Of a stretch of DNA of 64,000 nucleotides, positions 35,539 through 43,324 are shown in pieces. The position numbers and the translations under genes were made by a program. How positions within the stretch are numbered: position 1 is the first letter of the stretch; every line of letters begins with the position of its first letter. This stretch comes from Desulfobacula sp. (GTDB lineage Bacteria; Desulfobacterota; Desulfobacteria; Desulfobacterales; Desulfobacteraceae). The notes below the pieces were generated by a model. The model was not told where the DNA came from and did no database searches. It saw only the letters and a list, made by a program, of their open reading frames with translations. The stretch spans positions 124,001 through 188,000 of the forward strand of contig JAMPXP010000010.1 of the NCBI GenBank assembly GCA_023701135.1. Reading direction: 5' to 3'.

Positions 35539-35754
35539 ATGGCAGCACAAAAAATCACCTTGAATGTGGACGGCATGAGTTGCGGGCACTGCTCCGGCAT
35601 GGTTCAGCGGACCCTTGAAGGGATTAAAGGCATATCCAATGTGGTTGTGGATTTGAATGGGAAAAAGGCGGATTTTGAAGTTACAGAAGCGGCTCTCGTC
35701 GAAAAGGCCATAAAAGAAGTCACAGAAGCCGGGTACAAGGCCTCGAAACCCTAA
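35539..35754 (+). CDS. Heavy-metal-associated (HMA) domain chaperone, CopZ-like
   Basis: The 71-residue protein consists of one HMA domain: LNVDGMSCGHCSGMVQRTLEGIKG, with the metal-binding M-S-C-G-H-C loop (the usual x before the second cysteine is His), VVVDLNGKKADFEV and EVTEAGYKAS. Such proteins carry Cu(I) or similar soft metals to ATPases. No P-type ATPase lies nearby. About 1.7 kb separate it from the mercury-methylation operon; a functional link is possible but unproven. Confidence 0.88.
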   Translation: MAAQKITLNVDGMSCGHCSGMVQRTLEGIKGISNVVVDLNGKKADFEVTEAALVEKAIKEVTEAGYKASKP

Positions 35755-37229: not shown

Positions 37230-37502
37230 ATGCAGATGACAACCGAACAGCTTGCAAAAATTTTCAAGGCCCTGGGGCATCCGACACGGGTAAAAATTGT
37301 GGAACATCTGATCCATATCAATACCTGTGTCTGCGGGGAAATCGTCAATATTTTTCCCTTTTCCCAGTCCACCATCAGCCAGCATTTAAAAATCCTGAAA
37401 GAATCGGGGATTGTCTGCGGCGAGGTTGAAGGCCCGAAAACCTATTTCTGCGTGGACAAGGCTGTTTTGGAAGAATTCCGGGAATACATCAAAAATCTTT
37501 AA
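37230..37502 (+). CDS. ArsR-family transcriptional regulator
   Basis: The 90-residue winged-helix protein fits ArsR/SmtB: LAKIFKALGHPTRVKIVEHL, then NTCVCGEIVNIFPFSQSTISQHLKILKESGIV and KTYFCVDKAVLEEF. Cysteines in the C-V-C-G pair, in VCGEV and in YFCVD could bind arsenite, mercury or another thiophilic metal. Its gene is 11 bases before hgcA and sits behind a palindromic operator. ArsR-like genes next to hgcAB have been noted in other methylators, so it likely regulates the operon. The inducer cannot be told from sequence. Confidence 0.85.
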   Translation: MQMTTEQLAKIFKALGHPTRVKIVEHLIHINTCVCGEIVNIFPFSQSTISQHLKILKESGIVCGEVEGPKTYFCVDKAVLEEFREYIKNL

Positions 37503-37513
37503 GGATAATACCA

Positions 37514-38704
37514 ATGAAACAATCGCAAGGTTGCGGATGCAACGAAACCGCTTCTCAAAACAGACACAAACTATCCACCTCCGGGGTGGGCATCCTGGGC
37601 TCCATGGATGACCTCCCCTCCTGTGCCCCGGAACCGGACCGCCCCGGAGCTGCCTATGAAAAACCGGGCTACAGGCTCTGCTCCTATGTGGACCGGTTCA
37701 TCCCGACGGATGCCGGCCCTGTTCCCCTCATCACGCCAAGGCTTACAAAGGACGACCTGGTATCCACTTTTTTAGTCCGATGCGGCATTGGGCGGCATTC
37801 CTATACCGTCTCACCCGGACTTTACGCCATCGGAAACCCGGATAAAAATTCCGAAGTTCTGGTCACGGCCAATTTCAAACTGACCTTTGACCATTTAAGA
37901 AAGGAACTGGCCGGCATCCATGCCTGGGTCCTGGTTCTGGATACCAGGGGCGTCAATGTCTGGTGTGCGGCGGGAAAAGGCACCTTTTCCACCCGGGAGC
38001 TGGTGAAACGGATAAAAATGACCTCCCTTGAAAAGGTTGTGGACCATAAACGGGTTATTCTTCCCCAGCTCGGGGCAACAGGGGTGTCGGCAAGGGATGT
38101 GAAAAAACAGTCCGGGTTCCGGGTCATTTACGGGCCGGTGCGGGCCAAGGATATCCCGGCCTTTTTAAATCATGATAAAACCGCGGACAAAACCATGCGC
38201 CAGGTCACCTTCTCCCTTTACGAGCGGTTTATCCTGACCCCCGTTGAAATCCGGATGGCATTAAAGCCGGCCCTGATGTTCGCCCTTGCCGTGTTCATTC
38301 TTTCCGGTTTCGGGCCCGGCTTTTTTTCCTTTGCCGGGGTTTGGGATAGAGGGTGGCCGGCTTTTTTTGCCCTGGTCATCGGCATCCTTTCCGGGGCCTT
38401 GGCCACCCCGGTGCTGCTCCCCCATATCCCCTTCCGGCAGTTTGCCGTCAAAGGCATCCTGTCCGGAGCCGTCTTTGCCCTGATCTTTCTTTTGCTCTCG
38501 GCGCCGGCCGGTCATGGAATTTCAGGATTGACCGCCCTCTTTCTCTTCAGTGTGACCGTCAGTTCCTACCTGGCCATGAATTTCACCGGGGCCACCCCCT
38601 TTACCTCTCCCTCGGGGGTTGAAAAGGAAATGAAACGGTTTATTCCGGTCCAACTGGCAGGTCTTGCCCTTTCTTCGGGGCTATGGATATATTCGGCATT
38701 TTAA
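37514..38704 (+). CDS. hgcA: HgcA, corrinoid protein of mercury methylation
   Basis: The 396-residue protein contains the diagnostic cap-helix motif NVWCAAGKGTFST at residues 148-160; Cys151 is the predicted lower-axial thiolate ligand of cobalt. The corrinoid-binding domain extends from about residue 50 to 235. Five hydrophobic membrane segments follow (PALMFALAVFILSGF, FFALVIGILSGALATPVL, GAVFALIFLLLSAPA and others). HgcA transfers a methyl group to Hg(II) to give methylmercury and is anchored in the cytoplasmic membrane. It is preceded by arsR and followed 24 bases later by hgcB. The extra Cys-rich start (CGC) is unusual. Confidence 0.95.
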   Translation: MKQSQGCGCNETASQNRHKLSTSGVGILGSMDDLPSCAPEPDRPGAAYEKPGYRLCSYVDRFIPTDAGPVPLITPRLTKDDLVSTFLVRCGIGRHSYTVSPGLYAIGNPDKNSEVLVTANFKLTFDHLRKELAGIHAWVLVLDTRGVNVWCAAGKGTFSTRELVKRIKMTSLEKVVDHKRVILPQLGATGVSARDVKKQSGFRVIYGPVRAKDIPAFLNHDKTADKTMRQVTFSLYERFILTPVEIRMALKPALMFALAVFILSGFGPGFFSFAGVWDRGWPAFFALVIGILSGALATPVLLPHIPFRQFAVKGILSGAVFALIFLLLSAPAGHGISGLTALFLFSVTVSSYLAMNFTGATPFTSPSGVEKEMKRFIPVQLAGLALSSGLWIYSAF

Positions 38705-38728: not shown

Positions 38729-39019
38729 ATGAAAGAATTAAGATATCTGGACGATGTGTCCACCCTGGTCCTGGACCCGGACAAATGTGTGGGATGCGGG
38801 CTCTGCACCGAAGTCTGCCCCCAGGCGGTGTTTGAAATGCACCGGAACAAGGCCCATATTGTGGATTTCAATGCCTGCATGGAATGCGGCGCCTGCGTAA
38901 ACAACTGCCCTTCCGAGGCCATCTCCGTCGGTCCGGGGGTGGGGTGAGCCGCCTATATTATCCAGGTCTGGATAAAGGGAAAAGAAAAGGCCTCCTGCGG
39001 CGGGGGCGGATGCTGCTGA
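38729..39019 (+). CDS. hgcB: HgcB, two-[4Fe-4S] ferredoxin of mercury methylation; probable selenoprotein (TGA at codon 73)
   Basis: Residues 1-72 are a typical HgcB: CVGCGLCTEVCP and the diagnostic CMECGACVNNCP, two 4Fe-4S cluster motifs. The frame then meets TGA at 38945-38947, but continues without frameshift for 23 codons to a TGA at 39017-39019. These codons give AAYIIQVWIKG and an end with C-G4-C-C, i.e. the HgcB tail with its terminal cysteine pair. The TGA stands at residue 73, after GVG and before AAYII, exactly where HgcB has its conserved cysteine, which has been shown to matter for methylation in Pseudodesulfovibrio mercurii ND132. Read as selenocysteine the protein has 96 residues, as expected (about 95). 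A hairpin fitting a bacterial SECIS follows the TGA. Ordinary gene finders would report a truncated 72-residue protein. A nonsense mutation is the alternative. Confidence 0.85.
38945..38975 (+). other. Bacterial SECIS-like element: UGA plus downstream hairpin
   Basis: Starting ten bases after the TGA, TTATCCA (38958-38964) pairs perfectly with TGGATAA (38969-38975) around a GGTC loop. The loop begins 17 bases after the TGA. The E. coli fdhF element has the same CAGGUCUG apex with the GGUC loop 18 bases after its UGA, and SelB recognises the loop G and U. The element also codes for residues IIQVWI of HgcB. Confidence 0.75.
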
Positions 39020-39226: not shown

Positions 39227-42200
39227 CTACCAGCCATGAAGACGTTTATCCACCCTGCTTTGCTCATTCCACCACTCGGCATTTCTGGCATAGCCATCGG
39301 CAATATTATTTAGCATTCTTGCCACGAAGGGAGTTTTATTCATTACCTTTTTTGCCATTGTTCTATATTTTTCTTCCCTTTCTATTTCTCTTGTCGAATC
39401 TTTTTTTCTAAACTCCGCGCCGTGAGAATTTTGTAGGCCAATTTCCATACCAATTGAAATTTCGGAAGATTCTATTTCTTCAAAAACGATACGAATTTCT
39501 TCTTTAGGCCAGATGCCATCCATACCTTCAGGAGAAGTCGAAAAAAGCTTTCCTATCTGTTGATCGGTGATATCCCTTCTTCCATATTTAGCCGACAGCT
39601 TCCTAACTTGCAAAACCCAATCGCGCAATTGGTCAACTTCTATAGAACCATCCTTTTTTGTTCCAGGGATAACATTAATACTCTGCAATACATGATAAGC
39701 TTTAGTGGCTAAATTCTTTTTTGCTGTTTTGTCTTGGGGGATATTCCATTCCTCAGGATCATTCGCACCGCTCCTACTTTTAAAACAATGGGCTACTAAT
39801 TGGTAAAAAAGTAGTGGCGTTTCAGAAATTTCTTTGGAAAGATTAGGTATCCCATATTTGGAATTAAAATATAACATATCGCTATAAAGATATTCTAACT
39901 TGATTAGCTCTAAACGATCATAATCATCTCTTTCATTTAAAATCTTCAATGACTCTTCAATATGATATTGAGAGGGTTTGTAGTTCTTATCGTAGTCAGC
40001 CTCTTTATAGGCAATCTCATTTAATAAAAGCACCAGGTGTTTACTTAAAATTAAATTTGGCTTTAAATGAGCAAGAAAAAAAGCCGCAAAAGGTCGCTTA
40101 GTTTCTACCAATTTCTCAACAGCATAGTTTAAATCTTCCGATGACAAATCTCTCCAACCGGGCTCAATATGACGCCAATATTTATCAATTATATCTTTCT
40201 CTTGATTATTCAGATGCTCCCATGTGTCTCTGCAAAATGGTGATAGTGTAAATAATTTTACGATCATGTCACTTCGATTTTTCTTAAGACATATTTCAGC
40301 TATCATATCTGAAATGAAATTTTTCCGTTCTTTTCCTTTCATCTGATAAAGGATGCCAGATATGCAATTATTGATTTCAGACCTAAAGGACTTGTCAATG
40401 GACAAACATTTGGAAATAACGTCATAAAGTTCATGTTTTTCTAATATACCGCCATGCAAGAGTGATCCAATATGGAATCCAGAACCACATTTTTCAAGCA
40501 GAACAATTACACCTCGAATCCCTTTTTTAGTAACGATTTTATTTAGGGCTTTTTTTCTTTGTTCAGTTAATTTTATTTCACGATCATCATAATCAAGATT
40601 ATCGTTTTCAAGCTCTTCAGGAGTAAATTCAACCCAACTATTAGCGAATAACCATTGATGCTTTTTAACCAAATCCTGAGGCTCCAGGATTTCGTATAAC
40701 TCTTTGCCGCTAACATAGCTTGGATTTGATTTGTTCCTATCATTTTTTAAAGCTCTGGTGGTCATTGTTCGAGTTCTAACATGCTCCCTCAGTTCGAGAA
40801 CCTCGTCTTCGTCAGGTGAATTGTCAACCCATAATTTCACCTGCTCAATTACCTTCTGCCTATCATCATTCTCCAATGAAGGTAAGCAATCTATCAAACC
40901 CTTAAGCGTCTCTAAAGTATGAGAGGGCCAGGACAATACTAATTTTAGACATTTCAATACAAAAATTCTCGCTTCACCGTTATTTATTGTGCTGCCGGAA
41001 CCACTTGCATAATTGCGCCAATTAGGTCTTTGTGTGCCTGAAGTGAAACTGTTTTCTGAATTTAATGTTTGAATACACAGCTTCCAACCAATTTTAGGAT
41101 AAGAATTACAAAGAAGCTCAAGAACATCGCATCTCTGTTCTACTGTGGCTGCGGTATGCGGTTTCCAAAAAAGTAATATATCCTTTAATGAGTTGATTGG
41201 TTTATTTACCCAATTGTCATCAAGATCGTAGGTGGATAATTTCCCAAGAATCTTTATAACTCTTGCTAAAAAAAATGAGTTCCAAGCTAAAATTTCCAAG
41301 GCCCACAACATTCCTGTCCGATCACACCGTGTAAATAATCCTCCTTTCACCGGTTCAAACAGAATATTAAACGCTGGAATATCCTTTCTAAGCTCTTCTT
41401 CCACAATAGAAAGAAACATCTCTGGGGCAGCTTCGGCATATAGCAGCAACTCATTTTGCTGCGATTGCCATACTCTGCTATTTTTGTTTTTGAGAAGTGT
41501 TTTAATTAAAATTGAAACCCTACCTTCAAGATCCATCCCAATCCTTTTACCAAACAGCCCATTTCCATGAACTGACAGTATAATCAAATTTTGGCATATG
41601 CTTTTTCGGATTGCTGAAGAGTGGTCTCGGACTTTATTATATATGTTCGCCGCCCATTGATCTTCCTTCTTTAAATCTAATGCTGGGTCATCTTCAGATA
41701 ATACGTACTCAGCTATTTCGAAAAAATTGTTCATATCCTCAGCAGTTATTTGATCGGATACACTATAGAGACATTCTAATTTTGAGATCACTCCTCTGTA
41801 TTGTCCTTCTCTCCAAATCGGAGAATCATCCATACCTAATATTTCCGCTAAGTCTTTTTCTATTTGTGAATAGTCCTTATTGGCAAGGCACATTAGAATT
41901 TCTTTATCCCCATTTCTATTTGCTTCCCATGAACCGGCAAAAATAAACGGGATTATAGCTTTAAAGATTTTATTGGATTTTGCCCATTTAGGTTTCTTAA
42001 GGCCGGGTGCTTTTGCTAATAGCCTTCTTAAAATTGTGGGCGAATGCCCTGATTGGTTTGAAATTACATCTATTTGAGCATCATCAAACCCCATATCATC
42101 AAGAGCGGCTTTGAAACTTTCATAGTTTGGAAGGTCTATTATAATGTCGGCTTCCATACCATTGATATTTCTTTCAGAGATAATTATCGAATGTTTATCT

Positions 42201-43324
42201 TTGAAAGATGTAATAAGTCCTTTCTGGGCCTCATCGTTATCGATAATAGGAATATAATTTTGAGAAATTCCGGAGAGTTTAGTTACAAGATTTGAGGACG
42301 AAACGAATAGAGCAATATCAAAAAGTGGTTTTAATGCATTAACCTCATTTGCGATGCAGCACAAAAAAGCTTTTGCTTCATCTTTAGATGCGCCAGTAAT
42401 AATAAGTGGTTCACATTGATTACTTCGATACCAGCTCTTAATCTTTTTACTATGATCCAAAATGGCACTATTAAATATTTTAGAACTAATAGGAGGGGTC
42501 GCTGTTTCCGACCAATATTGCCAATACGAAGCCAAGGATTGGCAATCACTTGTTGGGAGGCCTAATTGCTCAGCCATCCAAATTTGAGCTGAAGCTGATA
42601 ATTCTAACCACTGTTCAATATCATTAGCGTCAAAAGCTCTAAGATCCTTCCATTCCCCGGTTGCTTTATTTAGTTTTATCCATTCATCTTTTTTGGGCCA
42701 ACACCTTGGAGTTACGAAAACAAAAGTAGTCTTTTTTTGGATATCTTTTGGAATGGTCTCAGTCCGTGTTTTAAAATCACTGTCCGCCTTCTTTTTTGGA
42801 TTTTTATTACAACCAAACTCCCAACCTGATAAACCTGATGATATCCAAGCAGTTGCACTGTTTGATTCTACTGTACCATCCCAGCCAGGGGTCTGCGATT
42901 TGTCATAAGCTGGAAAGTCTGACTCAATAATGTCTGCGCTTGTGGTATTTACTAAACGTCTTAAAAGAACAGGTAATAACGATCGGGCTTCAATTTTATC
43001 TGCCCATGCTTCAATCTGCGTAGAAGTTATATTTAAAAATGAAGGAGTGTAGCTCTTTACTGCAATCCTTTTTGCTTCTTCGTGATTTATGAATGAATCA
43101 TATTTCTGTTGGATATTTAATAAAAAATCTTTATCAACGCCAAAAGTTTTTTCTAACCTTATTGCCATGTTCGAAGAGAGATTAGATCTACAATTTAAAA
43201 AATTTGATAGTGCTGGGCGACCAATCCCCATCATTTCGGAAGCTTTTTTGATTGTCAATTCGTTTGGGATTAGATTTTTTTTGACATATGCACCAGGGTG
43301 GATGGGAGGCTTTTCTTTCGACAT
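39227..43324 (-). CDS. Giant protein with HigA-like HTH head and degenerate NTPase-like region; candidate defence protein
   Basis: The protein has 1365 residues. Residues 1-75 are a HigA/XRE-type antitoxin HTH (PPIHPGAYVKKNLIPNE, then GIGRPALSNFLNCRSNLS). Residues 100-255 carry a conserved block found in other large uncharacterised bacterial proteins: TPGWDG, GLSGWEFG, KKKADSDF, TFVFVTPRCW and DANDIEQWL; the D...E...K pattern could be nuclease-like, but this is not proven. Residues 306-320 (LIITGASKDEAKAF) look like an eroded P-loop. The rest is helical and repeat-like without a recognised domain. No HigB toxin gene is next to it. AT-rich codon use and its isolated position between hgcAB and core genes suggest transfer. 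A perfect palindrome precedes it, so it likely regulates itself. Confidence 0.6.
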   Translation of the reverse strand: MSKEKPPIHPGAYVKKNLIPNELTIKKASEMMGIGRPALSNFLNCRSNLSSNMAIRLEKTFGVDKDFLLNIQQKYDSFINHEEAKRIAVKSYTPSFLNITSTQIEAWADKIEARSLLPVLLRRLVNTTSADIIESDFPAYDKSQTPGWDGTVESNSATAWISSGLSGWEFGCNKNPKKKADSDFKTRTETIPKDIQKKTTFVFVTPRCWPKKDEWIKLNKATGEWKDLRAFDANDIEQWLELSASAQIWMAEQLGLPTSDCQSLASYWQYWSETATPPISSKIFNSAILDHSKKIKSWYRSNQCEPLIITGASKDEAKAFLCCIANEVNALKPLFDIALFVSSSNLVTKLSGISQNYIPIIDNDEAQKGLITSFKDKHSIIISERNINGMEADIIIDLPNYESFKAALDDMGFDDAQIDVISNQSGHSPTILRRLLAKAPGLKKPKWAKSNKIFKAIIPFIFAGSWEANRNGDKEILMCLANKDYSQIEKDLAEILGMDDSPIWREGQYRGVISKLECLYSVSDQITAEDMNNFFEIAEYVLSEDDPALDLKKEDQWAANIYNKVRDHSSAIRKSICQNLIILSVHGNGLFGKRIGMDLEGRVSILIKTLLKNKNSRVWQSQQNELLLYAEAAPEMFLSIVEEELRKDIPAFNILFEPVKGGLFTRCDRTGMLWALEILAWNSFFLARVIKILGKLSTYDLDDNWVNKPINSLKDILLFWKPHTAATVEQRCDVLELLCNSYPKIGWKLCIQTLNSENSFTSGTQRPNWRNYASGSGSTINNGEARIFVLKCLKLVLSWPSHTLETLKGLIDCLPSLENDDRQKVIEQVKLWVDNSPDEDEVLELREHVRTRTMTTRALKNDRNKSNPSYVSGKELYEILEPQDLVKKHQWLFANSWVEFTPEELENDNLDYDDREIKLTEQRKKALNKIVTKKGIRGVIVLLEKCGSGFHIGSLLHGGILEKHELYDVISKCLSIDKSFRSEINNCISGILYQMKGKERKNFISDMIAEICLKKNRSDMIVKLFTLSPFCRDTWEHLNNQEKDIIDKYWRHIEPGWRDLSSEDLNYAVEKLVETKRPFAAFFLAHLKPNLILSKHLVLLLNEIAYKEADYDKNYKPSQYHIEESLKILNERDDYDRLELIKLEYLYSDMLYFNSKYGIPNLSKEISETPLLFYQLVAHCFKSRSGANDPEEWNIPQDKTAKKNLATKAYHVLQSINVIPGTKKDGSIEVDQLRDWVLQVRKLSAKYGRRDITDQQIGKLFSTSPEGMDGIWPKEEIRIVFEEIESSEISIGMEIGLQNSHGAEFRKKDSTREIEREEKYRTMAKKVMNKTPFVARMLNNIADGYARNAEWWNEQSRVDKRLHGW

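What the first reader, a model, noticed from the sequence alone, without database searches (positions are those of the whole stretch)
38729..39019. HgcB appears to be a selenoprotein: in-frame TGA replaces the conserved Cys73
Seen: after 72 residues of a clear HgcB ferredoxin, the frame has TGA, then 23 more codons in the same frame that spell the HgcB C-terminus (AAYII...W, ending in C-C). Counting from the ATG the TGA is codon 73. Known: HgcB of ND132 has a conserved Cys73 and a terminal cysteine pair, and these residues matter for mercury methylation. Inference: selenocysteine sits at position 73, which would give a selenolate for Hg(II) binding or transfer; selenium binds mercury far more tightly than sulfur. 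I know of no description of a Sec-HgcB, and automated annotation would truncate the protein at 72 residues.
Basis: partly seen in the sequence, partly recalled or inferred. Interest (0 to 1): 0.97.

Follow-up and report, generated by a model that had tools for sequence, protein, structure and literature searches.

The report
Selenocysteine form of mercury-methylation protein HgcB
In this bacterium the mercury-methylating partner protein HgcB very probably carries selenocysteine where most relatives carry an essential cysteine; such forms were already predicted in print, and here the feature looks like the rule for a whole bacterial family.

Summary
hgcB (38729-39019, +) follows hgcA and has an in-frame TGA at codon 73 (38945-38947), then 23 codons spelling the HgcB C-terminus with its terminal Cys-Cys. 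Decoding of the UGA as selenocysteine (Sec) is strongly supported. The genome has tRNA-Sec, SelA, SelB and a SelD with its own TGA. A hairpin fitting the published bacterial SECIS model lies 17 nt after the UGA. All 53 HgcB-bearing genomes sampled from the window's family have TGA73, as do 8 of the other 116 in the class sample. The hairpin codons are almost frozen at synonymous sites in TGA rows, not in Cys rows. A tree needs two label changes: one Desulfobacteraceae-type Sec clade and one Clostridiales row. The novelty claim fails: Sec-HgcB was predicted by Haft & Gwadz (2023), as cited in papers seen in passages; that paper itself was not held. Family-wide fixation and the codon-level constraint were not seen in the passages I read. 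What Sec does (probably a Hg or methyl-Hg ligand) is inference. No protein-level evidence was available.

The parts
38729..39019 (+). hgcB, read as 72 residues, Sec73, 23 residues, stop
   Evidence: NF040864 121.3 bits over positions 1-93 of 93 with 1 TGA inside; translation
38945..38947 (+). in-frame TGA, proposed Sec codon 73 in GVG-Sec-A
   Evidence: only TGC, TGT or TGA at this codon in 80 relatives plus the window
38958..38975 (+). SECIS-like hairpin: stem TTATCCA/TGGATAA (7 bp), loop GGTC at 38965-38968, 17 nt after the TGA
   Evidence: fold; synonymous constraint; loop AGGTCT in 51 of 64 distinct TGA rows
39008..39019 (+). end of hgcB: terminal Cys-Cys codons and the stop TGA
   Evidence: 59 of 64 distinct TGA rows end in Cys-Cys
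37514..38704 (+). hgcA, corrinoid protein, Cys in NVWCAAGK, no internal stop
   Evidence: NF040863 429.6 bits, cut-off 275; ORF
37230..37502 (+). ArsR/SmtB-type regulator directly upstream of hgcA
   Evidence: NF033788 72.8 bits, cut-off 55

Best explanation
hgcB here encodes a selenoprotein. UGA at codon 73 is decoded as selenocysteine by SelB and tRNA-Sec, directed by the hairpin 17 nt downstream, and translation goes on to the Cys-Cys tail. Shown here: the sequence, the machinery genes, the conserved hairpin, the Cys/TGA alternation. Inferred: that Sec is really inserted, and that the selenolate takes over the proposed role of Cys73 (a ligand that receives Hg(II) or methyl-Hg from the tail cysteines), which would make methylmercury formation in this family depend on selenium supply.
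For: tRNA-Sec over the cut-off (76.8 bits; anticodon TCA), SelA, SelB (G000 row, 2.7e-105), SelD with its own TGA, four further TGA-bearing matches to the formate dehydrogenase alpha family in the own genome. The bSECIS model in the Fig. 2 legend of PMC13188914 asks for loop 3-9 nt, upper stem 4-16 bp, G in the first two loop positions, spacing 16-37 nt, MFE <= -7.5; here 4 nt, 7 bp, GG, 17 nt and -9.0 kcal/mol for 38948-38982. Codon 73 is Cys or TGA only (27 TGA, 54 Cys of 81 rows). TGA73 in 53 of 53 HgcB-bearing genomes of the family, 61 of 169 in the class sample. In 64 distinct TGA rows the Ile codons 77, 78 and 82 sit on ATT (63 of 64), ATC (63 of 64) and ATA (63 of 63); 0 of 100000 random position sets are as constrained, against 10282 of 100000 for 28 Cys rows. 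The sequence after the TGA still spells an HgcB C-terminus.
Against: No protein or translation data. The single hairpin is not unusual energetically (z -0.53, -0.90 and -1.29); without its outer 3 bp it folds at only -6.3 kcal/mol, above the -7.5 limit; 13035 of 200000 random synonymous recodings have an equal stem. The Rfam scan gave no SECIS-like match. SelB at E <= 1e-60 is found in 55 of 61 TGA genomes but also in 327 of all 389, so co-occurrence says little; of the 6 misses, 4 have tRNA-Sec over the cut-off, while G302 and G377 showed neither tRNA-Sec nor SelB over its cut-off. Three rows lack the usual loop (AGGGCT in 2, AAGTTT in 1).
Confidence: 0.92

Rival explanations
1. The TGA is a true stop: the family makes a 72-residue HgcB without the helix and Cys tail, or hgcB is decaying.
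For: Table 11 ends the ORF there; no protein data. One relative (L065/L142) has a second in-frame TGA further on.
Against: The region after the TGA keeps frame, peptide sequence and, in 59 of 64 distinct rows, the Cys-Cys end; synonymous sites are more constrained there than upstream; no codon other than Cys or TGA at 73 in 81 rows.
Confidence: 0.05
2. The TGA is read through by another tRNA (for example as Trp or Cys by near-cognate decoding), with the hairpin only promoting readthrough.
For: Hairpins after stops can promote readthrough in other systems (recalled).
Against: The genome has a complete Sec system; the codon alternates with Cys only; the loop GGTC and its distance resemble those of formate dehydrogenase-like TGA genes of the same genome (L130, L132).
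Confidence: 0.025
3. Sequencing or assembly error.
For: One base separates TGA from a Cys codon.
Against: 61 genomes of the class sample and 64 distinct sequences overall carry it, among them contigs of several Mb (L144, L148).
Confidence: 0.005

Closest known systems
Sec-containing HgcB predicted by Haft & Gwadz 2023 (NCBIfam NF040864, motif GVGU, example WP_250697400.1 in a table row of PMC13188914)
   Same: Same protein family and same motif GVG-Sec, hence the same residue.
   Different: The 2023 paper was not held, so which clades it lists is unknown to me.
Cys73 HgcB of D. desulfuricans ND132 (PMC7305189, passages)
   Same: Dicluster ferredoxin, residue 73 at the start of the C-terminal helix, Cys-Cys tail, hgcA partner.
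   Different: Cys in place of TGA at 73.
HgcA listed as a predicted selenoprotein (NF040863, motif CU; PMC13188914 table row)
   Same: Same pathway and gene pair.
   Different: HgcA of this window has no internal TGA, nor does any match in the printed, capped table of the class scan.
Formate dehydrogenase alpha selenoproteins of the own genome (L129-L132)
   Same: In-frame TGA; in L130 and L132 a GGTC-containing loop at 18 nt, against 17 nt in hgcB.
   Different: Unrelated protein family; Cys/Sec position in a molybdopterin enzyme.

Membership tests
HgcB (NF040864) | Profile score over the curated cut-off | tested here: met
   102.9 bits for the first 72 residues alone, 121.3 bits read through; cut-off 99
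HgcB (NF040864) | Two CxxCxxCxxxCP motifs, hgcA next door | tested here: met
   Translation; HgcA NF040863 429.6 bits at 37514-38704
HgcB (NF040864) | Cys at residue 73 | tested here: not met
   TGA in its place; met in the Sec sense only if UGA is decoded as Sec
Bacterial selenoprotein gene | In-frame UGA aligned with Cys of homologues | tested here: met
   TGC 41, TGT 13, TGA 27 of 81 rows
Bacterial selenoprotein gene | bSECIS element downstream of the UGA | tested here: met
   All four criteria quoted met with -9.0 kcal/mol for 38948-38982; the bare stem-loop gives -6.3, above the limit; synonymous constraint
Bacterial selenoprotein gene | selA, selB, selC, selD in the genome | tested here: met
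   (G000 row)
Bacterial selenoprotein gene | Selenium in the protein | not testable with these tools
   Needs mass spectrometry or 75Se labelling

The most novel reading that the evidence does not exclude
Sec73 was fixed once at the base of Desulfobacteraceae-type HgcB and makes mercury methylation in that family selenium-dependent, with the selenolate as the Hg or methyl-Hg ligand. Sec may also have been recruited to other Cys positions of HgcB elsewhere: a tail Cys in L211, and a cluster ligand in L200 that could equally be an error.
Probability: 0.3. Interest if true: 0.75.

Novelty: already known. Interest (0 to 1): 0.45.

Why it matters
If UGA73 is read as Sec, hgcB of a family of probable mercury methylators is cut short by gene callers without Sec models, surveys that need full-length HgcB may misjudge it, and methylmercury formation there would be tied to selenium supply, a testable environmental link. 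The residue concerned is one whose change to Ala abolished methylation in ND132 (passage of PMC7305189).

Tried and rejected
The Rfam scan of the region gave four matches, all below their gathering scores, none SECIS-like. Energetics of the single hairpin are weak, so the case rests on conservation between species. Covariation was not run because the stem hardly varies. SelB co-occurrence was kept as consistency only, because 327 of 389 genomes have SelB.

Rows listed as '1 TGA' are not all Sec73 rows: G146 (L018) has Cys73 and a terminal TGA; so does G091 (L197); so do four of the five TGA rows of the phylum scan that lie outside the class (L207-L210). The first script for searches had a faulty pattern and found nothing; corrected. 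In one search, 179 of 185 rows were located; the other six (L086, L192, L200, L203, L205, L206) were read and have Cys at the place of codon 73. For the tree, 11 of 110 rows were dropped because HgcA was not found upstream. Second HgcB matches in G079, G085, G138 and G387 were beyond or apart from the rows read one by one; one G138 copy was read (Cys). Class-scan rows listed with 'none' or with a TAA only (G321, G374) and no locus were not read one by one.

Full report
Observation. The window has hgcA (37514-38704; NF040863, 429.6 bits) and, after 24 bases, hgcB (38729-39019). hgcB has an in-frame TGA at 38945-38947, codon 73, followed by 23 codons ending in Cys-Cys and a second TGA. An ArsR/SmtB-type regulator precedes hgcA (37230-37502). 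The first 72 residues alone pass the HgcB cut-off (102.9 against 99 bits); the gene read through scores 121.3 bits over the whole profile.

Machinery. The genome that holds the window (42 contigs, 98.87% complete) has tRNA-Sec (76.8 bits; anticodon TCA), SelA, SelB (G000 row) and SelD. SelD contains one TGA, seen as GUASK near its start. A full-length formate dehydrogenase alpha match and three partial matches to that family each contain one TGA. After these TGAs two genes (L130, L132) have a GGTC and one (L131) a GGGC at 18 nt, against 17 nt in hgcB.

Relatives. In 80 loci of the named genome collection plus the window, codon 73 is TGC in 41, TGT in 13, TGA in 27; 80 was the cap, 528 candidates encoded a relative. 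In the class sample, 169 of 389 genomes have HgcB at E <= 1e-20 (every relative printed there is of the window's order). All printed matches with a TGA were read, from loci held or fetched, and the 21 genomes whose places were not printed were searched again. Result: 53 of 53 HgcB-bearing genomes of the window's own family have TGA73; 8 genomes outside it have it too (G341, G366 with two copies, G135, G044, G218, G283, G133, G061). That is 61 of 169. In the phylum sample 116 of 395 genomes have HgcB at E <= 1e-22, four of them in the class sample (G000, G004, G005, G008); five of the other 112 list a TGA, and none of these five is at codon 73. In the class scan of HgcA (174 of 389 genomes) no match in the printed, capped table has an internal stop, so the TGA is a feature of hgcB.

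Hairpin. 38958-38975 folds as a 7-bp stem with loop GGTC, 17 nt after the UGA; 38948-38982 gives -9.0 kcal/mol, which meets the four bSECIS criteria printed in PMC13188914 (Fig. 2 legend). The stem-loop without its outer pairs gives -6.3, above the -7.5 limit. Taken alone it is weak evidence: z -0.53, -0.90 and -1.29; 13035 of 200000 random synonymous recodings reach the same stem length, 970 of 20000 the same energy. Across 64 distinct TGA rows it is strong. Codons 77, 78 and 82, all Ile, sit on three different codons: ATT (63 of 64), ATC (63 of 64), ATA (63 of 63); codon 79 is CAG in 62 of 63. Mean normalised synonymous entropy of codons 75-82 is 0.242, against 0.74 for codons 1-72, and 0 of 100000 random position sets are as low. 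In the 28 distinct Cys rows with the same peptide context it is 0.754, with 10282 of 100000 sets as low. The loop hexamer is AGGTCT in 51 of 64, AGGTTT in 6, AGGTGT in 2, AGGGCT in 2, AGGTAT in 1, AAGTTT in 1; the remaining row is the Clostridiales one, whose hairpin is different.

History. On a tree of 99 HgcA+HgcB rows built without codon 73 (quick method, SH-aLRT only) the label Sec needs 2 changes (24.6 on average for shuffled labels, 0 of 500 as low). One lies at a clade of 27 rows (support 98) that holds the window next to L046, a Desulfobacula MAG; the other is L102, a Clostridiales MAG. TGA genomes placed outside the family may reflect transfer or binning; only some are in the tree, and I do not decide.

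SelB. A match at E <= 1e-60 is found in 55 of the 61 TGA73 genomes, but also in 327 of all 389. The 6 misses are G252, G302, G350, G366, G376, G377: 4 have tRNA-Sec over the cut-off, and pieces of SelB turn up in some; G302 and G377 have neither over its cut-off. This is consistent with Sec but hardly discriminating.

What Sec73 does. PMC7305189 (passages) reports that Cys73 to Ala abolishes methylation in vivo, that loss of both tail Cys removes 95% of activity, and proposes that the tail hands methyl-Hg to Cys73. A selenolate there would bind Hg more tightly (general chemistry, recalled); its effect on turnover is not known.

Known or new. PMC11588087 (passages) says that recent analyses suggested that some hgcA and hgcB homologues may be selenoproteins, citing Haft & Gwadz 2023. 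PMC13188914 (table row) lists HgcB, NF040864, motif GVGU, with that citation. The 2023 paper was not held and I saw none of its text. Library searches: HgcB with selenocysteine, 1 paper; hgcA, hgcB and selenoprotein, 3; mercury methylation with selenocysteine and selenoprotein, 4; citations of the 2023 title, 9 held, 6 listed; hgcB with Cys73, 3; hgcB with Desulfobacula, 4, one of which was seen in passages (PMC8163782). The core claim is therefore already known as a prediction. Fixation across the family and the codon-level constraint were not seen in the passages read, but the key paper could not be checked.

Noticed in passing
L211 (G644, same phylum, outside the class): HgcB with Cys73 but an in-frame TGA in the tail, at the place where a same-genus relative (G446, L212) has a Cys, followed by codons that end in Cys-Cys and TAA; a possible second Sec site or an error. 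SelB of that genome was not searched.
   Followed up: partly
L200 (G068): HgcB with Cys73 but TGA at a ligand Cys of the first cluster motif (CSG-TGA-GEC); a same-genus copy (G138, L216) has Cys there; single MAG, possibly an error.
   Followed up: partly
   Followed up: no
L102:2501-2760: A Clostridiales MAG with TGA73 and a hairpin of different sequence, on a separate branch of the tree.
   Followed up: partly
L135, L158, L185: TGA73 rows whose hairpin loop departs from GGTN: AGGGCT in L135 and L158, AAGTTT in L185. L131, a formate dehydrogenase-like gene of the own genome, also has GGGC.
   Followed up: no
window 35539-35754 (+): Small heavy-metal-associated (HMA) domain protein, 71 aa, about 1.8 kb upstream of hgcA.
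   Followed up: no
window 39227-43324 (-): 1365-aa ORF downstream of hgcB on the other strand; Pfam recognises only an N-terminal HTH_3.
   Followed up: no
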